Shown: one piece after another, positions 15,340 to 48,358 of the stretch | Layout of the letters: each line of letters opens with the position of its first letter | Numbering within the stretch: position 1 is the stretch's first letter | Assembly: GCA_029717555.1 (NCBI GenBank) | Contig: JAMDHS010000053.1 | Span: forward strand, 1 to 64,000 | From: Peribolospora baueri | Taxonomy: Eukaryota > Basidiomycota > Peribolosporomycetes > Peribolosporales > Peribolosporaceae | Length of the DNA stretch: 64,000 bases | Direction of reading: 5' to 3' | Program-made: the position numbers and the translations under genes | The notes under the pieces: model-generated | Database searches by the model: none | The model's input: only the letters and a program-made list of their open reading frames with translations | Told to the model about the DNA's origin: nothing

Positions 15340-18300
15340 ATGCCCTCCTTCCAGGACGACTACCGTCCACACATCACCAACCTCCGCGATGGCGAGGTAG
15401 TGTTCGACGTGCGTGCCTGTTTCCCGCGTATACTCACCCTCACTGGCTGACCGCAAATGATATATGCGGGTTCCTCGCGCGACTTTGCATCTAATGTCTG
15501 TAATTGCTCGCTCACTTGTTCGCCCACTGGCCTGTTTCACTCTGCACAGCGCCTCGTGCTCGTGCATGGCACCGTCGGCCCAGTGGGCAAGTTCTTCGAT
15601 GCTTCGATCCTAATGGACGGCAGCGGCCAGTTTGCGCCGCAAATGTGGCAGGTAACGGATGGTGCGCTAGCGGAAGACGGTCGTTCTTTTGACGCATCGG
15701 GCTGGGCGTTGACCAAGTTGGTTGCTGGTCCTCCGCCCGCACTCTCTCACAGGCTATTTCAAGGCCCTCGTCCCCCTCAGCCCCGGCCCCCAGACTCTTC
15801 GCTTCAGTTATGTCCCTTCTCCCTGTCCTATCCCGACGTCAAGTCTACCCTCTCTCGATCCTTCGTGGCCCTTTGCGACGCTCAACGTCACTTACACCCC
15901 TCGGCCGCACAATCCGCCTCTACATCTCGCCGTCCTCGTGGCCAAGGATAGCGAGCTGAAAGTCGATTGCCCGCCGGAAAGAAGAGGCATTGACGACGGC
16001 CTAGACGTGGTCCTTCGCAAGTTTGCGCTCCAAGCTTACATGTGGCAGGTGGGGTACACGTGGGAGAAGCCCGCTACGGGTGGGAGAAGCCCGCTACGGG
16101 AAGGAGGGTATTGTCCTTTCCGTTCTCACTCACTCTTGTTATCCTCTGTCTTCGAACGCCGCTCGCCGACGGTTTCAAACACCCCTCTCTGCTTCCCAGG
16201 CATATACCACCGAGCAGATGCGTCGACATGGGCTCGGTCGTCGCTCGTTCCGTTTCGACGAGGTCGACAACGCAGATATAGTTCAAGACATTGCTCAGCT
16301 ACCCAAGATCCATATTCTCAGAAGTCAAAGGACGATGAAAGAGATTAGAGAGAAAGATAACGCTCAGCAGTACCAGGGCGGTAAGTGAAGCGGTCTTTCG
16401 TCTTCTTGCTAGCAAGAGCTGTTTCTCGTTTCGCTCCGTTAACCCATGAGCACTCGTCTTTACTTTTCTCTATTCTGTGCGTCTGACCACATGGACACGA
16501 GCAGCCAAACGAGGCGCTGCAATGCTCGACTTCACGGTGGACGTTCTCGAATCTCCATCCTGCCCTCCCGAGATTTTACACGACAACGGTGCTCACGTCG
16601 CTTGCCTGACATTGGACACTCAATGGGACCCTCGCATTCGGCTTTTGCGCGGTCATGCCGCCGTAGGGTTTGGCGGTCCGGGACAAGGACTCAAGGTGGG
16701 CGTATGCGGGAGTCATTGGATCCATGCCGCTCCTCGCGGTCTGGAGGAGGTTACAATGAAGTTCCTGGACGAGGGGAGGACGGATGAGAGGTTTTGCGTG
16801 AACGATCTCGGCGAGGTGAGCTCCGTTGCGAAGGACTTGCAAAGACGCGCTGTTGTCTGCTGTCGTCCTGATGAGAATGTGGTCCTTGCTTCTTTGGCGC
16901 ATCGTCGAAAGTGTGGAACGAGTGAGTCGCTCCAAAAGCCATACTCGTTCCGGTCGCGTTTTACTTGCGCTCATTAGTTTCCCCACCTTTATGACATGCG
17001 GATTTGTAGATTGGGAGGTGAGATTTTGCACCCACCTCTTGCTCATGGCTGATGAGACTGGACTGATTGAGTTCATATCGGACGCTGAAGACGCTGAACA
17101 TCGGTTCTGGGTGAGTAGACGAGACGTGGCAGTGACATCCGAGGACGCGGTTGGCTGAAAAAGCCGTCTTTCCGCGCCGCGCCCCTGCTTCCCCATTAGC
17201 GCGTTTCTCCATGAGGTGAGGGGAGGAAGGGATAGAGAACAGGTGTACCGTGCTGGAAGCGTAGCTGATCTCTGCGGTCTTTGTCCGCAAGACCGGACAT
17301 GCGTTCAACAATCCTCACCATCCATCCGGCATCATGGCCCGAGGTTAGTTCCTAGCGGCCGACGATGTGTCCAGACTCGCCGATTTTTTGGTCCTTACGC
17401 AAGCGCTCTGTCACCTCGACAGGCTATCAAGAGTGGAACCGCGCCTTCATGACCCGCGAAGGGCATTCCACCCGCACAGGCTCGCGTTTCAAGCGGCCGA
17501 TCGCGGAGGACGACAGCGACCTGAATCACTGGCATAGGTTGGCTGCCATCCGTTTCCGGTTCCATCCTTCTTTCCGTCTGCCGTCCGACCCGCCGTTGCC
17601 CAGTCTCCGGGAGGCCCAATTCCAAGGCCATCAAGGGTGGAAGACGTACTTGGACTCCTGGCCGTCGTGGCAGCCTGTCGACGAGGGCATCGTGCTCTCC
17701 TGCGCAGCCGGTATCGCCCTCGTGGAGATCGAAGTGGATGATCAGTTCAAGAGCCACATAGAGTGGCCATTTGTTGACCCTCCGTCGCAGCCAGCCCCAC
17801 CCACAAGCATCCTGATCACGCCACAGTACCTTTCGCAGCGCATCGGAAGGGACGCAATGAGCTGCAAGGTCACCATGAAAGCGCTCGCCACGAACCACAA
17901 TGACGCGACTTTGCCGGATTTCAGAGGCGCGTCCGAGAGAATGCTTGTCCAGGGCGTCGAAGGCCCCGTCGTGAAAGGCGTTGCGTTTGGGCAGGAGTCG
18001 GAAAACCCGAGGCTGAGATGGATGGTGCCTCTGCCGAGCGCATTCGGTCGTGGACGAGGACCGAGATTGACGAGGGTAACTGTGGGTGAACGATGCGCTC
18101 CAAGTCCATCTCTGTTTCGCACAGACACGGAGACGATTTCGCTCTTCTCTTTCTCCGACGTCAGGTCCATTCAGGCGCCTGCTTGGATGGTATCTCGTTC
18201 AAGTTCGCCGACGGCAGTCGCATAGTCGTTGGTTCTGATTCGGGAGGCTCACCTCACCACTTTGATTTGCACGCGGGCGAGACGGTTGAGAAGCTCCACG

Positions 18301-21215: not shown

Positions 21216-24114
21216 GTAGTTCCACCCACCTCATCACCCCGTTCCCTGTGTGACAACCGGACCAGCGTCAGCAATGCCGCCAAGGACCACCGCCAGCGCG
21301 GCAGCAGCAGCCGCAGAATCGACAAACGACCCTGTCGCCACTCTTGTCGAATAACTCTCCGACCGCGTCAAGGCTCTCGAGGAGGCAAATCGAAGCCGAC
21401 GGGAAAGCCTTCGAGAGCTGGAGGAGGAGCGCGCCCTCTTCCTCGCAGCCGGAGAGCCTTGCGTCGCCGACCGTCGCCAAGGAGCCTAGCCTCGACGGTG
21501 TAGGAGGAAGAGGAGTGGAGACGAGAGGCAGGAGGAAGGGAAACCTGCAGGGTCAGGCCCTGATGGCAAGCTCGTCAGCAGGATCGATGGACGCGACGAT
21601 GCCAGGCAGCGGCCAGGTCGCAAGGCGGAAGCGGCTGAGTGACGAGGAGAAGAGGCGCCTCCAAGAGCTAGGAGCTAGGATGGCGTTTCACATGCGGCAC
21701 GGCGGGACACATCACGAGGGAGTGCCCGACGAGGACGGCAGCAAGGGGCACAACGAAGCCGGCGGCGAAGGTGAACACGGCGTATGTGGTCACCAAGGGC
21801 GAGGAATCCAACTTTGTTTGTCTCATGTTGCCGCGAGCCCAGCCGGAGAGCAGCACGCTGCTGTTCACGACCGTCGAGATGCATGGACACGGGGCGCCCG
21901 TACCCGCGAAGGCGCTAGTCGACTGCGCTGCGTCCATGACGTTCATCTCCGAAGACTTTGTCCAGGCACGCTCGCTGCGCACCTACTCTCTCAGCGAGCC
22001 AGGCCCCGTCACCCGGTTCGGAGGAGCCGTGAAGGACGACGTAACCAGAGAGGCGACATTCTTAGTTGCCCCGACGCGCGGCTGGGACCTCATGCTGAGC
22101 CAGCCGTTCCTCATCAAGAACGGAATCCAACTGGACTTCGCCGTACCGAGATACCGTATCGACGGCGCAGTAGTCCCATTCGACCCACCGACGAGGCCGA
22201 CGAATGTTGACGCAACCCCGGGACGACGCGCTAGCCAGAGCTCAAGCGCCCCCGATGTGCGGTTCGTCTCGGCTCTCGAGTTTCAGCAGCCGTTGCAGCT
22301 GGAAAGACATGCCCGCGCGACGAGCCTGGTCGAGCTCGGTAGCTCCAAGGCTACGGCCAACGTCGTAGCGGATGTCGACGAAGACCCGGAAGACGACCTA
22401 GGGGACAAGGATGAGATTGGCGCCCTCATCCCGTCAAATCATCACGAGTTCGTGAGCGTCTTCTCGAAGGCGAAAGGAGTCAGCTACCGCCAGTCACGAA
22501 GAGCACGACGACCATGTTCACCGTATTCTGCAAAGCCTCAAGGATGTTGGCTCGTACGCCAGTCCGAAGAAGTGCCAATTACAGTCGAGTGCAGTGTCTC
22601 CTGGAGAGGAGGCAGTACTGCGAAGGGAACGTCACGTCCGTCGAAGTCCTTAGAGCGCTGATGTGGTTCGTCACGAAACCGTCTTCTCAACCGCCGCCAA
22701 GCCCGGTGGGCGACCAAGCTCGCGACTTCGATTTCACGATCGCCTATGGACCGGGCCTGGAGGGCGGCAAACCCGACGCATTGACGCGCAGGAGCGACGT
22801 CTATTGGGGGGGGGGGGGGAAGAGACGCCCACGCGACCCACCAACGGCAAGACCCGCACGAAGGAGCTGAACTTTATGGCGCTGTTGCGGCCGGATCGGC
22901 TCAAGGCGGAAGCGAACGCGTTGGAGGTAGCGACATTGACGACGGTCCCGGACGACATCATCTTGCTCGTCAAGGAGGCGCAAGCCAAGGACGAGAAGAT
23001 AGCAGGATGGGTAGCCGAGCTCCGTAGCTCAGAAGCGACGAAGCTCAGGGACAAAGGCTACCACTCGCTTTTGGAGATACGCGCGAGCTTAGAGGCGGGG
23101 TCGGCGGAATATCAGGAGTACGCGGCCGACCTCCGCTTACTTCACGAATACCTACGACAAGAAATGCGCCGCGCGCAAGCAGCGTACGCGGCCGACTACG
23201 ACAAGAGGCGCTCGACGGTACCCGAGTACCGACCCGGCGAGAAAGTGTGGCCGTCGACCGAGAACCTGAAGACGAAGAGGCCGATGAAGAAACTCGATAT
23301 CAAGCATCTAGGGCCCCTCAAGGTTCTCGCGAAGGTGTCGAGCCATGCCCACAAGCTCAACTTGCCGCCTAAAGTCAAAGTGCATCCTGTTTTCCATGTC
23401 AGCCTACTCGAACCCTACTGACCGAACAGGATCGCCAACCGAAAACAGCCACCGCCACCTCCGGTCGAGGTCTAGGGCGAGGCTGAGTTCGAGGCGGAGG
23501 CGATCTTGGATTCGAAGCTGACGCGAGGAGACAGGTTGTGGTACCTCGTCAAGTGGATGGGATACCAGGGCGCGGAGGAAACGACGTGGGAGCCGTCAGA
23601 GCACCTCGAGCGAAGTGAGGAGCTAGTGGACGAGTTTCACGCACAGTACCCGCAGAAGCCCAAGCCTGGTGACGAGTTCGAGCCCAAGGGAAAACGGGCT
23701 CGACGAAGTTGACCAAGACAAGAACATACACGATTCGGCTTCGAGCTAGCGAAGTGAGTCCAGCAGCGACTGCAGGGAAGAGGGGAGCATCGCAAGATCG
23801 AACCACCGCACGGTGGTGGGTCGCGAGCTCGCCGCGCAGATCCCCAACCCCACGGCCAACACCCACGAACCGACTCCATCCGAAGGCACCACCGCCACTT
23901 CGTCAATATTCGCCTCCACGTCAACTCCGCCGTAATCAGATCAGCAAGCATCGAAGGAACGAAGGGTGCCGCACAAGCGGTCGCGGGGCCCCTCGGCGTT
24001 CCTACACTTACGGCGAGACGCGGATGGCGGAGCTGGGACGAAGCGCGGGGATGGGAAGGAGAGTTTGCAGAGGATGTGCGACGAGGACGCCGCACCTGGG
24101 AAGAGACGGGCTGA

Positions 24115-38555: not shown

Positions 38556-41500
38556 TCATTGAGGGTGACTTGAAGAAATCTTGTCGATCAGGGACGCTCG
38601 CTTCGGCGAGTCGGCGCTAATGAGTCACAGACCATGAGGAATGAATTGTCAGGTCAGCTTCTTAACGGTGCAACGAATAAGCATCCATATGAGGCTTACA
38701 AGAGCGACCTGATGAGCCGGCATAGTTCGTCTGGCGAAAAGTCGATGAGCGCGCCAGTCTCGAAGAGATCTGAAGAGGAGGCAATGTGATGAGCGCTCGG
38801 ACCGACCGCTGCCATTAAAATACGGACCGCTGGGAAACTCACAGCCGATGTCGACCAAGGAGCCGGTCAGAATCTCCGCCAAATAACTCATCTTGAACCA
38901 GTGAGGGACGAAGAACGCGACCGTGGACTGTTTGCCTTCCTCTATGACGAAGAGGGTCTCCAAAGATTCTAGTGATCGACACAGGTCGCTGAGCTTGTGA
39001 GATTCTGCTTCACCGATGTCTGGAATGGCCTCGATGTCGGAAATGATCCTATCTAGAGAAGCATCAACCAGCCGGCCTATGGCCTGGTAGTGCAGGTCCG
39101 AGGGCAGCACAGACTAGTAGTGATGAAAGCAATAGTTCAATCACCATTAGCGTCTTGACGTAATTTTCATCACGCTTACGATGTAAGGTTTGATGTCAAT
39201 TCTCTTCCACGCTCACCTTCCACACAGATGCAAGGCGGTGCAGACTGTGCGAGAGCTGTTTCAGCGCTCGATCGCTGGCCTTGAACCGTTGCTCAATGTT
39301 CGCATCAACGAAACCTCCCGCTTCATCCAGGCACTCCATAAGAACTTTGGTTTGCAGCGTCTGGGACGACACGTGTCGTTTGGATGGATGCGACGTCAGG
39401 TACTAGCCGGACTACTGCGACAGCAAAGCAGCTGGGAAACTCACGATTTGGGTATCGTACCACCTCGTTCCCAGCAACTTTACCCTCGCCGCCCTATCAC
39501 TCAGCTTGACACCGTGAGAACCAGGGCCACCGTCAAAAGGGAATTGGACATGGGAGCTTGCAGATTCGATCGCCTCAAGCTCTCTTGAGAGGAAGTCACA
39601 ATCGTTGTGAAACTGCATCGCGAGCGCAGGAACGTTGTTCAGGATTTCCTCATGCACGACCGGGAGGATGGCCTGGTACAGGTCGAAGACGTCGAGGAAG
39701 GCGCGGTACAGCGTCGCCGCGCTGCTTCTGAGCGTTCGATCATCCCCACTAATGGCATTGAATAGCGAACAAAGAGAAGTGAGCGGAGCGAAACTGGACA
39801 TTTCAGCACAGGCTAGTCTCACCTCGAATCCAGGATGAAGACAACATCGTTGAGAATAGATAGTGCGGTAGATACGATCTCCTTCGACCGAATCGATATG
39901 GTATATTGTTCTTTGACTGGAGAAGGGGACGATGACTCCAGACCGGGGGCGGAACGCGGAGAGGTTGAAAGATTCGTTGCTGGTGCTCCGCCTTGAAAAT
40001 CCGCGGACGTTTGCTCCTCCGGCATGGAAAGAGGCTCCGGAACTGCCTCGTCGAGGCCCCATCCATCCTCCTCCTCCATCTCCGTAGAGGGTTGTCCGAC
40101 GTTGGGAGATTCCAACGCTGTCTTGCCGGAACCTGATCCGACCTCCTCCTTCCGCATCTCAGCTCGGCCTCCAGCATCTCGTTGTGGAGGTGCAGTCGAG
40201 GCGCCAGCACCTCCCAGGGAACCGTCGACGCGCCCTTTCTGCGCGGAAGTCCGTGCCACGACCATGAATGACCACCTCTCCCCTTCCACCTTCCACCTCT
40301 CGCCTTCCCATGCCTCGCCCAACAACATCTCCCGCACCCGACTGAGAACTTCTCTCCTCTTTTTCTCCGCAAAATGCATACCGATGTGCGCGGAGAAATG
40401 GCTTAGCGGTTGGAGCTCCGGGTCGGGCCTGCCCCACTCGTTCACCGAGTCCACGTCGCCCGCCTCCGAGTCTCCTCCGTCCACCGACAAGTCCACGCTG
40501 GCGGTCCTCGTACGGGTGAAAGACATTTGACTCTCCGCGCGCGGGATCATGAGCTCTGGCCGCGGCGCCCATCCGAGGACTTGCATCTCGCGCTCGAAAG
40601 AGACAGCTTTCTTGGCGAGCGTCTTGAGCCGTGGCAGCTCCTCTACCGTCGTCGGTATTTGCGGCTCTAAATACCGGGTCAAGGTCGCGGAAGAAACGTC
40701 TGGACCGAGGAGAAAGGCGAAGGAGGTCTGGAGCTGCGAGGAAGAACTGAACGAAGGGCCGGACGAGTCCCGCGTACTGGAGAACAGAGAGACAGCCAAG
40801 AATTTGAACAATCGGAGCAGAGCGTCGAGGGGTGTTTTCGGGGGGTCTTGGCCCTCGCCTTCCTCATCGAAGCCCCAGCCCTCGACCTCCTTCCATGCCA
40901 AGCGTGCCGAACGACCACCTTTGCGACTCCACCCTTCCTCGTCGTGTCCGTCTGCAGGCTCGGGCTCCTCCTCCACGATGACCTCCACCTGAGACGTTTG
41001 GTAAGGCCCAACTGGGGTGTCTAAGATGGGAAGGATAAAGCGCTTCAGAAGTGAGGACTTGAGGGAGAGCAGGCGAGGCGTTAGGTGACCACGGGCAGAC
41101 AGGCTCGAGAGAAGAGCAGAAAGGGGGATGAGCGCGGGGGAGCTGGGCGTGACTAGCGGCCGTCAAGCAAAGCAAACGTTAATCAGGTTGATCTGCACAT
41201 CCGATCAATTCAGCCAATGCGACCCACCTTGGACCTCCGAGTAGATGGTCAACGTCGTTGATCCTTCCAGCGTCCCAAACACGATCGCCCGATCCCAAGC
41301 ATCAATCAGCCTCTCATCCGCCTTGTCTCGCACGGTCTCTAGACGGGCTTCCAGCTCGCCCCAAATCTTAGTCTCGGCGATCCAGATGTCCGCGTCGTCC
41401 TGCCAATGTTTGGCCGCGTCAAAAACAGATCGAGCGTCCGGCCACGAGGAGACCGCCTCCTCCAGTTGTCCTTGCTCAAGAAGCTCCTCGAGTCGCTCAA

Positions 41501-42094
41501 GGGTCAAAGCACATCGTTGCAAACGGGAGATGCCGTCAAGAATGAAAATGGAATGAGAGCTGCGTTGCAGGACGGCCGAGTGCGCTTGTATCTGGGACAA
41601 GAGGGAAGGGGTAAAACCGAGCTGCAGCCGACGGCGGAGGATAAAAGGCGAAACGAGATAAAAGCTTAGCGAGCAACCTGTACCAACGCCGCAACATCGT
41701 AAAGACACTCACCTCTGGGCTGTCTATTCGGCTATCGAGCTCCGCAACGCTCTGCGAAAGATCCGCGAGCGTCAGAGACGTCCGCACCGATGCTTGCGCT
41801 TGGCGCCGGAAGGATGGAAGGTCGGAGTGAACACGAGCGTGAATACGATGCTGTTGCAAGGAGAAGAAGCCAAAGGAAGGATGGGTCAGGTCGTACCCAT
41901 CATCCCTGCGCGGAGCAGGCAGACCGCACCTTGACGTCTTCGATCGCCTCGTTCAACCTCTGAACGTGCGAAGCGATGGACGGGCCTCCGCTCGTGACGT
42001 CTGCGCCGATTCCGTCAAGGAACCGGCCCACATCAAAGACGGTCCTTGCCCGCTCGTGCGGTATCAAGGGTGAAGCGGTCGCCGTCGTCGCCAT
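38556..42094 (-). CDS. ZW10: ZW10 homologue (Dsl1/RZZ tethering subunit)
   Basis: ZW10 proteins serve Golgi-to-ER vesicle tethering (Dsl1/NRZ complex) and, in animals, the kinetochore checkpoint. The protein starts MATTATASPLIPHERARTVF at the ATG at 42094. The N-terminal third is helical (ASHVQRLNEAIEDVK, LTLADLSQSVAELDSRIDSP). A long middle exon (about 39,830-40,990) is acidic and Ser-rich. The C-terminal half has the ZW10 pattern: LYRAFLDVFDLYQAILP, ALAMQFHNDCDFLSRELE, HWFKMSYLAEILTGSLVDIG. The last 13 codons (from SLF|ADSPKRASLIDKI) come from a final exon ending at the TGA at 38556-38558. This matches the family's LFADS..R...I ending and shows that the TAA at the exon edge is not the true stop. 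Estimated length is about 850 aa. Confidence 0.86.
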
Positions 42095-42405
42095 CAGTGC
42101 GCGCTTGCCGTCGTCGTTCGAGAGAACCAAGCCGCCATGGCACAGCGCTCGAGCCAGCGAGCCGGCAGTGCCTTCCAGCCCCCGCGCTCACACAGGACCA
42201 GATGGAGAGGCGTGGGAATATTCCCCTGCTGCGGCGCTGCGGCAACGCGGCGAATTCATTCACCTTCACGCGACTCCATTAACATCTAGATGATCTCACG
42301 CCGCATTTCTTCCGATCACTACTAACTGCGAAGGATTCGGCAAGGACGATGAAGGCGACCAAAAAGGCGTCGGCATCGGTAAAGATAAAAACAGACCAAA
42401 CTCAC
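42095..42405. other. 5' flank of ZW10 and probable left inversion breakpoint
   Basis: 311 bp between the ZW10 start and the splice donor of the minus-strand CLR2 exon. It should hold the ZW10 promoter and part of a former CLR2 intron (GTGAGTTTGGTCTG read on the minus strand at 42405). I see no long inverted repeat with the other side that would explain the inversion. Confidence 0.45.
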
Positions 42406-42664
42406 CACTCGGGACGCCCATCCTTTTCGCCATTTTGGCTCCGACTTTGTTGAGCCAGACGAGCGTGGTGGGGTCGTTGTGAGAGACAGGGTGATAGTAG
42501 TTGACTTGACCCTCGGCGTCAGGAGTGGGGTCAAGATTAGGAGGGCGATCGGTAGAATCACCATCAGTGCGAGGAAAGACAACTTCAACCCCGTGGAGGC
42601 TAAGCCTCGCCCTGAGGGCAGCATCGTCGCCGGCCGAAGGACGTGCTTCGTTTGGATGCTCCAT
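42406..42664 (-). pseudogene. CLR2: CLR2-type silencing gene, exon 1, on the wrong strand
   Basis: A minus-strand frame from the ATG at 42664 (MEHPNEARPSAGDD) to a GTGAGT donor at 42405. It carries the N-terminal signature I associate with basidiomycete cryptic-loci-regulator 2 proteins: VVFPRTDGDSTDRPPN, GQVNYYHPV, WLNKVGAKMAKRMGVPS. It ends in phase 1 (AGT G). The exon that should follow (SEVKYRLRSFPAKYQLYYHR) is on the plus strand at 42930 and begins in exactly the matching phase. On its own strand the frame runs on into 20-30 random residues and stops. So exon 1 looks inverted relative to the rest. Clr2 in fission yeast is part of the SHREC histone deacetylase complex. Confidence 0.72.
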
Positions 42665-42929
42665 TGGTCTTGGACGTATCCCGAAGGCGTTCCCCAGCGA
42701 CGAGGGACACTCCAGCCTTGGGCTTTCAGCCAGGTATATAGGAAATGATGCCAAGGCGAAGGTGAGGGCGCGATGGCAACGAGGAGACCGCGCGAATTGG
42801 CCGTTCGGAGCCTCCTCTGGCTCTGGCTGGTGGCCACGTTCGAAACTGTTCCCGTGTGACCCACCCTACGCGTGACCGGAGCTGATGGATGCCTACCTGG
42901 ACGCATTTCGCTCTTCCTTCCAGCTTCAG

Positions 42930-45473
42930 AAGTCAAGTACAGGCTTCGGTCCTTCCCGGCCAAATATCAGCTTTACTACCACCGCAAGGGTCCCAAACAG
43001 AATCCAAAGCATGACGTCTATCTCTACGGTGCGTCACTACACCTTTTGCCACATACGGTCGTGTCCGTAGTAATCCTGTAGCTACGCTCACTCTCGCGAC
43101 GGATCCGTCACCTTTCTCATCATGAAGGCTGTCCAGGGAAGCACTTTCGGTCGCCCTCCGAATTCTTCGATCATGCCTAGTGGCTTCTCACGGACGAGTC
43201 CTTGAATCCCGAAAACTGTGGTTGCAAGTACGACAAAGGCACTGGCTGGGCAAAGATACGCGGGGCCAAGAATATTGGTGGTACACGTCACAACGCACGT
43301 CAGGGCCGTCCAGGCAACGTGCTCTCGGAGCACCACGCCAATGTTCGCCCGGCGCAGCCCGTTTACAGAGTCGGAACCGCTGCACCGTTCCAGAAGAAGG
43401 AGCGCGACCGCGAGATCCGTCGCGATGGGATCGGCTACCGCAAGGCCGAGCTCGTCTGGGTTCGATTAGACGAATCCGTTGTAAGCGAGAACGGCGCCAA
43501 CAAGGAAGGGGATGATGCCGACGACGATAGGTGGCCTCTCATCGGTGAAGGCGGTCGCATCACTCACTGGCCTGCGATCATCCAGGACACCGTGCTGCTC
43601 TGCGACCCTGCTCCCTCGCCCTCGGCTCGGACTACATCTTCCACTTCAACTCCTCGAACTATCCAGAGAACATGCTACACCTGCCTCCTGCTCGGCACGC
43701 GGGACAACATCGAGCGCTTCAACGATCAGATTCGGCCATGGTTGTCGATGTCGGTCAGCATTGGCCTCTTACAAGAGTCTCATGCACGGCTTCCTTCGCT
43801 CAAGGACAAAGTATTTCTGAAGTGTCCGCGCACGCCCTACTTCAGCATCTTCAATAAGCCAAAGGAAGCGACCTCCAACCAAATTAGCCGGTCTCCTCTC
43901 AAGTCGTTCCAAGACTGTTTGCTACCGTTCATCCTCGGTGTCCAGTACGCCACGGAGGTCTCCCGCGTCTACACGTTTTTTGGCGAGTTCAACATCCCAG
44001 GAAAGCACTTCTCAAGCCCTTTGCCCGCCGATGCGACCGACGCAGAAAAGGCGGAAAACGAAAAGGCGAATGAAGCCTTGCACTAAAATTTGGGTGGGAG
44101 AAGTCGTGCGGCTGCGAATCTCTGAGGATCGTGTTCCCCAGCTCCGCCGTCTCCTCAAGAGATTTTCGAAACCTTTGTCCAGCAAGGCGCGCGACGATGC
44201 GGACGCGATGGAAATCAGCGACGACGAGGACAACGAATTGAACGAGGACAATACCCTTCATAGGGCTTCCTTCGTTGTGGACGTGAACGCCATGTACCGC
44301 GTCAACGGAACGGCGAAGCTGGCTGGCGATCTTTACGAAGTGGTCGAAGGGGCTCAAGAAGGCGGGTCCCAGCCTGGCACGTCCGGCGCCGGTTCCGCGT
44401 CAACGTCTTCCCATTCGGCCTTCAGGGGCAGATATGGCGATGGATTATACACCTCCAGGGATTCGTCCGTCGCCTTGATTCCTTCAACGCTCCTCCTCCC
44501 CGGCCCCGACGCACCCAAGGACACGCATCTCCAGCTGATGAGCCACCCCGAGCACGAATTTATTGTCGACATCAACGACCTGGCCGGTCGTTACTACCCG
44601 AAACTATCTTCACGTTTTGATTTGGGCCTCTCGAAGCAGATGAAGGCGGCGGCGAACCTACCCGACTATGAATGGACGGAGAAGGATTCGGCCAAGGCGT
44701 TCAAGTTGGGCTGCCTCGGTTACCTTTCGGGGAGCGAGAGGTTCATGCCGTGCGAAAAGCACGTACCAAGTCGGTACGATGCGGTCAAGGACAGCGAGAC
44801 CACTTGTCTCAAGGTGATGGTAAGTATGGCGACGTTTCCTCTGGTCGCTGCTTGGAGCATAACGCATCTTGAAGTACGGATTTCCGTTCAGGTCGCCGCG
44901 CTGCATGGGGGGGACGAGGACGACAACCTTGACGACAATATGGGTGTAGACGCGCCTTCTGACGCGCTCATTCCGAACGGGAGAAAAAGCAACTCGGGCG
45001 CGGATGTCGGAAACGCCGGTGACAGAATAATGGCTGCAGAGACGTCAGATGCCTCGAAAACGGATGTGACTGTCTCTCCCCTCGCCAAGCGTGGCCATGG
45101 CGCTGGCGGGCGGAGTAGCTTGTCAGAAGCCACCAAGTCGGTGCCGTCTGACGTGAGGAGAACGCCGTCGCCGGATAGACCGCGTTCATCTGGCGACGCA
45201 CCCACTGCCACCCGAAGTGCAGCGGCATGTGCGGAGGAGCTCGCCTTCGTCCAGCAGAGCGGAGATAGTCCGCCCTCATTCGCCAATGCAGCAGCAGAAG
45301 CTGAAGCGAAAAGGGTCCGACCTCGCCGTTGCTCTCAGCCCGGTCTATCTGTCCAACGCCGGTCAATCTCGTTCTCGCCCATCACATGGTCAGGACCATG
45401 CCGGAGGTCTGGCCGCCGCGTCCAACAAGGCCAGGCATTCCAGTTCTACAGAGAAGAGAAGGAGGGTAGATGA
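42930..45473 (+). pseudogene. CLR2: CLR2-type silencing gene, body, disabled
   Basis: Exon 2 (42930-43028, YRLRSFPAKYQLYYHRKG to DVYLYG) splices to an exon reading GKHFRSPSEFFDHA, then an in-frame TAG at 43178-43180, then WLLTDESLNPENCGCKYDKG. Both sides of the stop belong to one conserved Clr2 block, where a Leu codon is expected. The frame then runs through ELVWVRLDESV, RITHWPAIIQD and YTCLLLGTRDNIERFNDQI to about 44,086. There it ends in TAA and continues in the next frame (KIWVGEVVRLRISED), across a CACTAAAATTT run at about 44,082. The remainder includes an acidic stretch and PEHEFIVDINDLAGRYYPKL. A further frame change near 45,300 is possible, since KRKGSDLAVALSPVYLSNAG in another frame looks more natural. 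The gene lacks a promoter-proximal exon on its own strand. Confidence 0.72.
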
Positions 45474-46209
45474 TGAGCGTGACAGGTTCCCCTGGGCGTG
45501 ACCTGGCGCTGTATGGTTGGAGTACATTCGGTTGCATAGATTCCCTCTCGATTAATCTCCTCGGCCCCTCCGGTCTGTACGTGTCGTCACGTTTTTTTTT
45601 GTCCTACTGTGCTCCCGTCGTCTATCATCCACGTCCTCGGCAGTTTTTTTCTGTTTCCGACGATGCTTCGATCTCGATACTCCGCCTTCTTCTTCGCTGT
45701 TCGTTTCACGATGCTTCTCTCATCGCAATTCACCATCGCAAGTTGTTTGTCGTCTTGTACTTTACCGTCCATCCTTCTTGCATCTATTTCAATGTGTTTG
45801 GATTCCCGAGGCGACTGCCGGAAGAGAGTCGCCGTCGATCAATCAGGAACGCTCCGTCGAATCATCATTTGCAATGGTATACATCCCCCATTGTTCCCCT
45901 TACGTACTCACATGTACTGGTACATGTAACTCATCCTAGCCCCTACCGTATTTCATTTCCAACTGTTTTCGTCTCTTCGGCTCGTTTCCTCCTTACCGCT
46001 TCGACTCTTTTCCCTTCCTCCCCTTCGGCTCGTTTCCTTCCCTCGAACTCCCCTGTATATAAGGGCGAGCCCCCGAGGCATCCCCAAGAAAAAGCCTCCA
46101 CTTCCAAATCGATTTAGCTAGCCTCCGATCTACTCCCAGTTCGCTTCCACCACACCATCTCACTCGCTCACGAGCCCTGCTTCCACTCCGTCCCCGATCA
46201 GCGGCGGAT
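45474..46209 (+). promoter_or_regulatory. Intergenic region with TATA box before the 46,210 gene
   Basis: A good TATATAAG box lies at 46,056-46,063, about 150 bp before the next ATG. T-rich runs lie at about 45,592 and 45,643. Frames here (for example 45470-46117) are Ser/Phe-rich and have no family signature. Confidence 0.55.
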
Positions 46210-47472
46210 ATGACTACGCTCCCCACCGCATCCTCTTCACGACCCCTCCGTCGCTGCCCAGAGCGGCCCTATGTTCAGTCTGCTCGTCTTCCGTCGCTCG
46301 ACACGGACGACTCCGAGGCGGAGCGCAAGCGGCGGTTCAAACTTTTTCTCGATTCGTCCGAGGATGATGAAAACCAGTACGTGGAAAAGGGGGAGAGCGG
46401 AGGCGATACCACCGACGACAAGAACGAGAGAGGGCGGCAGATTGGCTATGAAACCCGTCGTCGAGTGAGCGGCGTTGTCCAAAATCCGCCGGCGGAACCA
46501 GCGCGAGGGGTCGCAGACGAAGAGCGGCAACGTTCGAGACGTCGTGAGTTGTGATTTTTATTCATTCCAGTCACAGGCTTTCTGAACGAGTGCGTCAACG
46601 GGTTAGCGTATAACTGATCTCCGTTCCTGTATTGCTTTCCCGTATTAGAGACAGCTTCCTCCTCGACGTCCAGCGTCGTTGCCCTCTCCACTCCTCCGCA
46701 CGCCCCGCATCCTTTTCGGGGTAGGAGTTTTCAAGACGGCAGTGACGACGAGCCCTGCGGTGGACGGGGAAAGGAACCGGACAGCCAAGAGCGTCAGCAA
46801 GCGCTTCGAAGAGTCGACCAAGTCTTTCTGCGGACGAAAGGACGCCAGATTGGGAACAGGAAGAGAGATAGGGCGGGAGATGACGAGGAAAGGCTGGCAG
46901 CAAGGCGTGCGGCGAAGAGGAGGGCCTCTGATGGAACGATGGGTGAGTCCTCGACTTTTCCCGGATGCATAGGTCACCATACTGCGATGATCGTCGAGGA
47001 TGAACTGCATAAATCGCCTGGGACCTGCACTGCATTCTTGCCTAGGTCAACCGGTCTTCATCCATGACTCCAGCTCGGACGAGGCTGACACAGACGTTTG
47101 CGGTCTTCAACACAGAAACGAAGGTGGAAAGAAGGAGAATGTCAAGTGGACCTACAATCTGTTAACCCCTCCTTCCAATCTTCGCCACAGACCCGCAGCT
47201 GATCCAAGCTGCACACGCCATTCCTCGTGGACCCCCATGCTCCAAGTGACAGCCGTCCGTCCGAACAGGATCAGCACTCTGACCAACAGCCTGGCTCTCA
47301 GCATACATGGGCACACGGTTCCGACCCCAGTACGCTGCCACCATCGGATGACCCGTGGCACTGGTTCTACCAGTGGCATAATCGCCAACGCCACTCTTCT
47401 AAGACCGATCCGTTCGACACGTCTCCAACCTCTTCATCGCAGTCCGACGAGGAGTCCGCTATGCTGCTATGA
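46210..47472 (+). CDS. Hypothetical acidic/basic protein, 3' end duplicated in reverse
   Basis: Exon 1 (46210-46543) reads MTTLPTASSSRPLRRCPERP and KRRFKLFLDSSEDDENQY. Exon 2 (about 46,650-46,941) reads APHPFRGRSFQDGSDDE and ERLAARRAAKRRASDGTM. Exon 3 starts after GCCTAG at about 47,046 (GQPVFIHDSSSDEADTDV). The last exon seems to be DPQLIQAAHAIPRGP followed, one frame over across a CCCCC run at about 47,233, by HAPSDSRPSEQDQHSD and DDPWHWFYQWHNRQRHS to the TGA at 47470. If the run really has five Cs, the end is frame-shifted. Charged clusters suggest a nuclear protein. No family recognised. The last exon is the left arm of a palindrome. A plus-strand exon at 47,821-48,043 could belong to the same gene before the rearrangement. 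Confidence 0.55.
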
Positions 47473-47730
47473 GATTGGAGACGTGCCGAACGGATCGGTC
47501 TCAGAAGAGTGGCGTTGGCGATTATGCCACTGGTAGAACCAGTGCCACGGGTCATCCGATGGTGGCAGCGTACTGGGGTCGGAACCGTGTGCCCATGTAT
47601 GCTGAGAGCCAGGCTGTTGGTCAGAGTGCTGATCCTGTTCGGACGGACGGCTGTCACTTGGAGCATGGGGGTCCACGAGGAATGGCGTGTGCAGCTTGGA
47701 TCAGCTGCGGGTCTGTGGCGAAGATTGGAA
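47173..47730. repeat. Near-perfect inverted duplication (palindrome)
   Basis: The left arm 47173-~47437 and right arm ~47466-47730 are reverse complements, with about three mismatches in roughly 265 bp. They are separated by a spacer of about 30-40 bp containing the end of the 46,210 gene. Both arms keep the same intron-like end (TTCCAATCTTCGCCACAG). The identity implies a recent event or active gene conversion. Confidence 0.93.
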
Positions 47731-48358
47731 AGCGGCCACAAGGGGGCATCTCTTGGTGACCGCAAGTTCCGATGCCCCACCCCCTCTCCGTCCTGACCTT
47801 TTTTTTTGTCATCCACAGCTCCTCGTGTATGTCAGGGAAGGCCGCTGCCCGTCTACGCGCTGTAAGACGACCGACGCATGCCAGCGCGCGGCTCTGGTCA
47901 AGATGGTCTTTGACCACTTCGACGCGAGCGGACCTGGTTGGAAAAGACGGACAACGTTGGCAACCGAGCGCAATCAGAGGGGCGAAAATGAGAAGTTTAG
48001 GCTCGCTTGGGGACCTTTGAAGGCTACGGTGGGTAAAAAATAAGTGAGACGAGGATCGACGAATGACATCGAGAGCCTCACAAATGGCCACCGCCACCAT
48101 TTTCGCTTTGATCCGCAACTCCAGCGTATGGTCGAAAAATCGAAGATCTGATCTCTGAAGAAGTGTGCGCAATGTGGCGACGAAAACCAATACCAGGAAG
48201 TCCACTGGGTATATCCAATCGTACACGTCTATTCTGGCGACCAATACCCTTCTGGGACGAAGATCACCCTACGGTCGTTCTACTCTGAATCGTGTAAAAG
48301 TCTTCGGTTCATTCTTGGCTGGAATTGCAATGGCAGGCGGCCATCGTCACCTTCCATG
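47731..48358 (+). other. Possible orphan exon and flank
   Basis: A strong 3' splice site (CCTTTTTTTTTGTCATCCACAG at about 47,799-47,820) precedes an open plus-strand frame. It reads LLVYVREGRCPSTRCKTTDA ... KMVFDHFDASGPGWKRR and stops at 48,043. It may be the last exon of the 46,210 gene, cut off by the palindrome. No family recognised. 48,044-48,358 shows nothing else. Confidence 0.4.

What the first reader, a model, noticed from the sequence alone, without database searches (positions are those of the whole stretch)
42406..45473. CLR2-type silencing gene split across strands by a small inversion
Exon 1 (minus strand, 42664 to 42406) ends GVPS plus one base before GTGAGT. Exon 2 (plus strand, from 42930) begins with the two bases completing that codon and reads straight into YRLRSFPAKYQLYYHR. 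The two halves of one conserved N-terminal region therefore lie on opposite strands 265 bp apart with compatible splice phase. The sequence shows the two exons directly; an inversion of about 0.5 kb with breakpoints near 42,300-42,400 and 42,880-42,925 is inference. The CLR2 assignment rests on the family's DGD...P, W..KVG, YLYG, FRSP.EFF and C.CK patterns.
Basis: partly seen in the sequence, partly recalled or inferred. Interest (0 to 1): 0.8.

Follow-up and report, generated by a model that had tools for sequence, protein, structure and literature searches.

The report
Broken silencing gene with flipped exon
A fungal gene for a chromatin-silencing protein appears to be dead: its likely first exon lies backwards just upstream, and the rest carries a stop codon and a probable break in the reading frame.

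Summary
A minus-strand ORF (42664-42406) ends in phase 1 at GTGAGT. A plus-strand Clr2 exon starts at 42930 in the matching phase, 265 bp away. The plus-strand part is Clr2: Clr2_transil scores 70-77 bits (cut-off 27), and S. pombe Clr2 (5ikj) matches at E 1.3e-8.
That the minus-strand ORF is the missing first exon is likely, but no homology shows it: Pfam, PDB and the two protein searches that included it found no relative. Support: it is the only phase-1 candidate of at least 25 codons with a consensus donor between ZW10 and exon 2, and the best coding frame of six. Such an ORF arises in 139 of 2000 shuffles.
The adjacent ZW10 gene reads intact for 948 codons. No other Clr2_transil locus was found in the 22-Mb assembly.
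Best reading: a young unitary CLR2 pseudogene with a micro-inversion of exon 1. No inverted repeats mark the ends. Ordinary kind of event, moderate interest.

The parts
42406..42664 (-). Putative CLR2 exon 1, 86 codons plus 1 base, donor GTGAGT at 42405; proposed to be inverted
   Evidence: only phase-1 candidate of at least 25 codons with a consensus-like donor; best of six frames by coding score; no homology hit
42326..42405 (-). 5' part of the former intron 1; also an 80-nt GT...CAG intron-like stretch as it now lies
   Evidence: Sequence; ZW10 introns are 73-121 nt. Use of the CAG is inference
42665..42929 (.). 265 bp between the two halves: inferred former CLR2 promoter/5'UTR (inverted) plus the 3' end of intron 1; right breakpoint somewhere near its right end
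   Evidence: the exact breakpoint is not determinable here
42930..43028 (+). CLR2 exon 2, carries motif C2SM1 (L, P, Y, L all kept)
   Evidence: PF16761 positions 1-34 at 42938-43036; motif residues from PMC3903592
43029..43127 (+). CLR2 intron 2 (acceptor at 43127; 43136 is an alternative)
   Evidence: 76.7 bits; 69.9 bits with the later acceptor
43128..44083 (+). CLR2 exon 3, first part; motif C2SM2 with an in-frame TAG at 43178-43180
   Evidence: PF16761 positions 36-67 with 1 TAG inside; 5ikj alignment
43178..43180 (+). In-frame TAG between the His178 and Leu182 equivalents of C2SM2
   Evidence: the single GT-AG stretch of 50-130 nt that would remove it in frame has no consensus donor and would cut out C2SM2
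44084..44088 (+). Frame change; the GAE of C2SM3 is not found in any plus frame of 43128-45501
   Evidence: GAE shared by all twelve sequences per PMC3903592
44088..44819 (+). CLR2 exon 3, second part, in another frame; weak Clr2 (PF10383) similarity below cut-off
   Evidence: 18.8 bits against cut-off 25; coding score
44820..44892 (+). Candidate last intron (GTAAGT...TTCAG)
   Evidence: Read; not tested otherwise
44893..45501 (+). Low-complexity CLR2 C-terminal region; the favoured frame changes again near 45200-45300, so the gene end is uncertain
38556..42094 (-). Divergent neighbour ZW10, 948 aa, 8 GT-AG introns, reads intact; control for sequence quality
   Evidence: ZW10_C2 88.4 bits

Best explanation
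This is a recently disabled, single-copy (unitary) CLR2 gene of a fungus. A micro-inversion of about 0.5-0.6 kb, probably two breaks rejoined by end joining, turned exon 1, the 5' part of intron 1 and the CLR2 promoter around, between the divergent gene ZW10 and exon 2. The plus-strand remainder now lacks a promoter and an in-frame start. Exon 1 now points at the ZW10 leader and could at most give a short peptide of about 100 residues. Independently, a stop codon in C2SM2 and a probable frame break at C2SM3 disable the rest. Shown: the opposite strands, the matching phases, the Clr2 domain, the stop, the frame change, intact ZW10, and no second copy found in the assembly. Inferred: that exon 1 belongs to CLR2, the inversion and its mechanism, and the loss of function.
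For: PF16761 in the plus-strand exons, one locus only in the assembly, 76.7 bits when exons 2-3 are joined. S. pombe Clr2 5ikj E 1.3e-8. The eight conserved C2SM1 and C2SM2 residues are kept at the published spacing. Only phase-1 first-exon candidate of at least 25 codons with a consensus-like donor lies on the minus strand. Exon 1 is the best of six frames and scores like exon 3 (0.035 and 0.038). TAG at 43178, frame change at about 44084 and no GAE in 43128-45501. ZW10 next door reads 948 codons without a lesion. The DNA of 42150-43140 matches only itself in the genome. No inverted repeat joins the two breakpoint zones beyond chance.
Against: Exon 1 has no Pfam, PDB or protein-database hit and adds nothing to the Clr2 match. 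Its coding score is only at the 14th percentile of 162 in-frame chunks (96th of 810 off-frame chunks), and the first half of it scores negative. A similar ORF arises in 139 of 2000 shuffles. The frame change could formally be bridged by an intron: 12 GT-AG stretches of 50-130 nt have the right length, 2 of them with a loosely consensus donor (GTACGC at 43945) but purine-rich acceptors; they would remove a stretch with a good coding score. The frames beyond the lesions are still long and open (301 codons, and 244 in the stretch tested), which also fits a live gene with local sequence errors. An assembly error cannot be excluded without reads. PF10383 is below cut-off and not found by the genome search.
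Confidence: 0.6

Rival explanations
1. Assembly or consensus error: CLR2 is intact in the organism, and the contig holds a mis-oriented 0.5-kb piece plus small errors at the stop and the frame change.
For: The lesions cluster in one gene while its frames are otherwise open; no reads were available; a 265-nt inverted repeat lies 1.7 kb downstream, and palindromes can disturb assemblers (general knowledge).
Against: ZW10, directly adjacent, is clean over 948 codons. No N in the window, no inverted repeat around the flipped piece that would let an assembler turn it, unique sequence.
Confidence: 0.2
2. The minus-strand ORF is not CLR2. The CLR2 remnant simply lost its 5' end, or starts with a very short or distant exon, and 42664-42406 is a chance ORF or a small gene of its own with an 80-nt intron ending at 42326.
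For: No homology of exon 1 found (in its own genome only weak further matches, E 0.047 and 0.58); chance rate of 139 in 2000 shuffles; a 3-codon plus-strand candidate with a consensus-like donor exists at 42202-42212; GT...CAG of ordinary length on the minus strand itself.
Against: Phase match of the only sizeable candidate, coding score equal to CLR2 exon 3, position right where the first exon should lie. Recalled, not tested: Clr2 N-termini with DG...P, VNY and W..KVG-like patterns before the Y.L..FP motif.
Confidence: 0.17
3. The gene is live and makes its mRNA by trans-splicing a minus-strand exon 1 transcript to a plus-strand exon 2 transcript.
For: Intact donor at 42405 and acceptor at 42929 with matching phase.
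Against: The stop at 43178 would still end the product inside C2SM2. The matching phase is expected from common descent alone.
Confidence: 0.03

Closest known systems
Clr2 of Schizosaccharomyces pombe (SHREC subunit; PDB 5ikj; UniProt O13881)
   Same: Clr2_transil domain, motifs C2SM1 and C2SM2 with all eight conserved residues, weak C-terminal Clr2 similarity behind them
   Different: Here a stop lies inside C2SM2, the frame changes at C2SM3 whose GAE is missing, and the likely first exon lies on the other strand
Unitary pseudogenes
   Same: Single copy, disabling lesions, no intact copy found in the assembly, intact neighbour
   Different: One of the lesions is an inverted first exon with a still matching splice phase; no orthologue was available to prove the loss
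Trans-spliced genes with exons on both strands, such as Drosophila mod(mdg4) (recalled)
   Same: Exons of one protein on opposite strands with a usable donor and acceptor
   Different: The downstream part is itself broken, and there is no transcript evidence

Membership tests
Clr2 (fungal SHREC silencing subunit) | Clr2_transil domain PF16761 | tested here: met
   37.7 and 29.4 bits exon by exon; 76.7 bits with exons 2-3 joined and X at the stop; cut-off 27
Clr2 (fungal SHREC silencing subunit) | C2SM1: Leu133, Pro137, Tyr140, Leu142 | tested here: met
   YRLRSFPAKYQL in exon 2 keeps all four at the same spacing
Clr2 (fungal SHREC silencing subunit) | C2SM2: Arg170, Phe175, His178, Leu182 | tested here: met
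   FRSPSEFFDHA-stop-WL keeps all four residues, but a TAG lies between His and Leu
Clr2 (fungal SHREC silencing subunit) | C2SM3: Gly374-Ala375-Glu376 | tested here: not met
   No GAE in any of the three plus frames of 43128-45501. A remnant of a Clr2 gene, not shown to be a working member
Clr2 (fungal SHREC silencing subunit) | C-terminal Clr2 domain PF10383 | tested here: inconclusive
   18.8 bits, E 0.0029, below cut-off 25; 16.2 bits in the joined reading; no genome hit at E 0.001
Clr2 (fungal SHREC silencing subunit) | N-terminal region before C2SM1 encoded upstream | tested here: inconclusive
   86-residue ORF in the right phase but on the minus strand, without homology hits
Clr2 (fungal SHREC silencing subunit) | Assembly with Clr1, Clr3 and Mit1 into SHREC | not testable with these tools
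   Needs biochemistry; the partner genes were not searched
Unitary pseudogene | Disabling lesions in an otherwise recognisable gene | tested here: met
   TAG at 43178-43180, frame change at about 44084, no ATG in the open frame 42860 onwards that runs into exon 2
Unitary pseudogene | No intact copy elsewhere in the genome | tested here: met
   PF16761 found at this locus only in 178 contigs; within the limits of the search and of an assembly that may be incomplete
Unitary pseudogene | Intact orthologue in relatives | not testable with these tools
   No fungal relatives reached (searches gave none)
Micro-inversion | Collinear order in relatives, breakpoints confirmed by reads | not testable with these tools
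   No reads, no relatives

The most novel reading that the evidence does not exclude
A fungus that keeps an H3K9 methyltransferase-like gene and an Argonaute gene has recently lost the SHREC subunit Clr2, the first or an early step being a flip of the ZW10-CLR2 promoter segment with exon 1. The flipped exon still carries its donor and could now splice into the ZW10 leader.
Probability: 0.25. Interest if true: 0.45.

Novelty: new member of a known kind. Interest (0 to 1): 0.3.

Why it matters
If the contig is right, it is a young natural loss of a heterochromatin factor in a fungus, with the frames still open enough to suggest a recent event. It would allow a test of whether SHREC can run without Clr2. 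It also warns gene annotators: an exon in perfect phase on the wrong strand points to an inversion or a misassembly, and the rest of the gene should be checked for further lesions before a split gene is proposed.

Tried and rejected
Protein searches with the C-terminal half, with residues 1-250 of the joined reading and with exon 1 gave 1541, 2468 and 1 word-sharing candidates and no hit at E 0.001, 1 and 10, so no orthologue, synteny or dN/dS test was possible; only bear on exon 1. PDB searches with exon 3, exon 1 and the C-terminal part gave nothing at E 10. The organism was not identified: a phenylalanine ammonia-lyase exon scores higher against entries that I recall as plant enzymes (52 bits; one names Joinvillea) than against 1t6j (43 bits; recalled as the Rhodosporidium enzyme), and the 18S search failed. 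A switch flanked by inverted repeats was rejected: none of the 15 inverted pairs in 41900-43300 joins the two zones, the best ungapped match between them is 8, and 73 of 100 shuffles do as well. Loss of the whole heterochromatin pathway was rejected as too strong: Pre-SET, SET (15 matches at E up to 1, one of them 1.8 kb behind the Pre-SET) and Piwi matches are present; RdRP and chromo shadow were not found, but those searches had no positive control. An intron instead of the TAG: one GT-AG stretch of fitting length, no consensus donor, rejected. Papers: abstract, section list and 12 of 16 found passages of PMC3903592 were seen; all others only as search listings (one search found none). I saw no report of a Clr2 loss in a basidiomycete in these listings, but the terms were few.

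Full report
What is there. The window is part of contig C127 (159,438 bp) of an unnamed 22.14-Mb assembly in 178 contigs. The window has 58.5% GC and no N. The gene content and introns are those of a fungus, probably a basidiomycete (inference). The plus strand from 42930 continues with two bases and then VKYRLRSFPAKYQLYYHRKGP.

The plus-strand part is CLR2. A six-frame search with PF16761 finds two adjacent stretches, 42938-43036 (profile 1-34) and 43130-43231 (profile 36-67), and no other place in the assembly. Joined across intron 2 (43029-43127) they score 76.7 bits against a cut-off of 27, 69.9 with the later acceptor. Against the PDB the only clear match is S. pombe Clr2, 5ikj, E 1.3e-8 (9 distinct sequences at E up to 10, the rest at E 0.14 or worse, 7 of them MeCP2, with a shorter query, an unrelated designed protein 5xg5 reaches 0.011). 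The conserved residues of the published silencing motifs C2SM1 (Leu133, Pro137, Tyr140, Leu142) and C2SM2 (Arg170, Phe175, His178, Leu182), as given in PMC3903592 (passages seen), are all present at the right spacing. The C-terminal Clr2 domain PF10383 is only hinted at: 18.8 bits, below its cut-off of 25, and missed in the genome search.

The gene is broken beyond the split. An in-frame TAG lies at 43178-43180, inside C2SM2, between the equivalents of His178 and Leu182. The only GT-AG stretch of 50-130 nt that would remove it in frame has no consensus donor and would cut out C2SM2 itself. The reading frame changes near 44084-44088, and the Gly-Ala-Glu that PMC3903592 reports in all twelve sequences of C2SM3 is not found in any plus frame of 43128-45501. 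An intron could formally bridge this change: 12 GT-AG stretches have a fitting length, 2 with a loosely consensus donor (GTACGC at 43945) and poor AAAAG acceptors; they would remove part of a stretch with a good coding score. So the stop is the firm lesion and the frame break a probable one. A further change of the favoured frame near 45200-45300 is possible, but that region is low in information.

Sequence quality. The divergent neighbour, minus strand 42094-38556, is ZW10. Spliced at eight GT-AG introns of 73-121 nt, it reads 948 residues without a lesion and matches ZW10_C2 at 88.4 bits, ZW10_C at 42.1 and Zw10_middle at 28.0, all over their cut-offs. One clean gene next door makes a generally poor sequence unlikely, but does not exclude local errors.

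Is the minus-strand ORF the CLR2 first exon? For: between the ZW10 start and exon 2 (42095-42929) there are five ATG frames of at least 25 codons that reach a consensus-like donor, and only the 86-codon one is in phase 1; the two on the plus strand are 25 and 27 codons and phase 0. With any length and any GT the plus strand offers three phase-1 frames, of 3, 10 and 33 codons, only the 3-codon one with a consensus-like donor; all would need introns of about 480-760 nt. The open frame that runs into exon 2 begins at 42860 and has no ATG before exon 2. A self-trained coding model (200 kb of genome plus two parts of the window) ranks the minus-strand frame best of six, 0.035 against 0.038 for CLR2 exon 3; a simpler codon model agrees (0.086, best of six; 60th percentile of 274 in-frame and 94th of 1370 off-frame chunks). 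Against: in the better model it lies at the 96th percentile of 810 off-frame chunks but only at the 14th of 162 in-frame chunks, and its first half scores negative. It has no Pfam hit, no PDB hit and no database relative; in its own genome only two weak further matches (E 0.047 and 0.58). Adding it to exons 2-3 lowers the Clr2_transil score slightly (74.4 against 76.7 bits) and does not extend the 5ikj alignment. In 139 of 2000 shuffles such an exon-like frame arises by chance. The DGD, VNY and W..KVG pattern of Clr2 N-termini is recalled; no call tests it. I put this step at about 0.75.

How it most likely came about. If exon 1 is CLR2's, the simplest event is an inversion of about 0.5-0.6 kb holding exon 1, the 5' part of intron 1 and the promoter. 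ZW10's introns suggest the original intron 1 was 73-121 nt, so the distance from 42405 to the left breakpoint plus the distance from the right breakpoint to 42929 should sum to about that (inference). No inverted repeat connects the zones 42230-42405 and 42800-42930: the best ungapped match is 8, equalled or exceeded in 73 of 100 shuffles, and none of the 15 inverted pairs found in 41900-43300 joins them. This fits two breaks with end joining better than recombination between repeats or a site-specific switch. As it lies, the donor at 42405 faces a CAG at 42326, making an 80-nt stretch, so a transcript of exon 1 could give a peptide of about 101 residues or run into the ZW10 leader (inference). 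The plus-strand rest lacks a start. Whether the flip, the stop or the frame change came first cannot be told; the long open stretches left (301 codons after the stop, 244 in the tested stretch after the frame change) suggest that all are recent.

Context. The assembly holds a Pre-SET match (C55:232038-232280), a sub-threshold first SET half from 232598 (15.8 bits, cut-off 22.4), a SET C-terminal half (C55:234111-234236), and a Piwi match (C96). RdRP and chromo shadow were not found, without a positive control. So at least part of a silencing machinery seems to remain.

Verdict. Interest is moderate, because the kind of event is ordinary and the decisive data (reads, relatives, RNA) are missing.

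Noticed in passing
47168-47735: Inverted repeat, two arms of 265 nt, 98% complementary, 38 nt apart, 1.7 kb downstream of the CLR2 remnant; possibly a fold-back element or an inverted duplication.
   Followed up: partly
21672-22658: Weak matches, below cut-off, to retroviral-type aspartyl proteases: probably a remnant of an LTR retrotransposon; observed only.
   Followed up: no
45157-45501: The favoured reading frame of the CLR2 C-terminus seems to switch from the frame ending at 45473 to the one ending at 45501; a further frame break is possible.
   Followed up: partly
L023 (G000:C55:230538-233780): Clr4-like gene with Pre-SET; its SET halves lie roughly 1.3 kb apart, with a His-Glu-Asp-Val-type repeat near the end of L023; its integrity was not worked out.
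   Followed up: partly
L003-L010: 5S rRNA genes are dispersed: 9 matches on nine different contigs among 47 of 1428 candidates scored.
   Followed up: no
17356-18222: Metallopep (PF12044) putative peptidase fragment, 48.3 bits.
   Followed up: no
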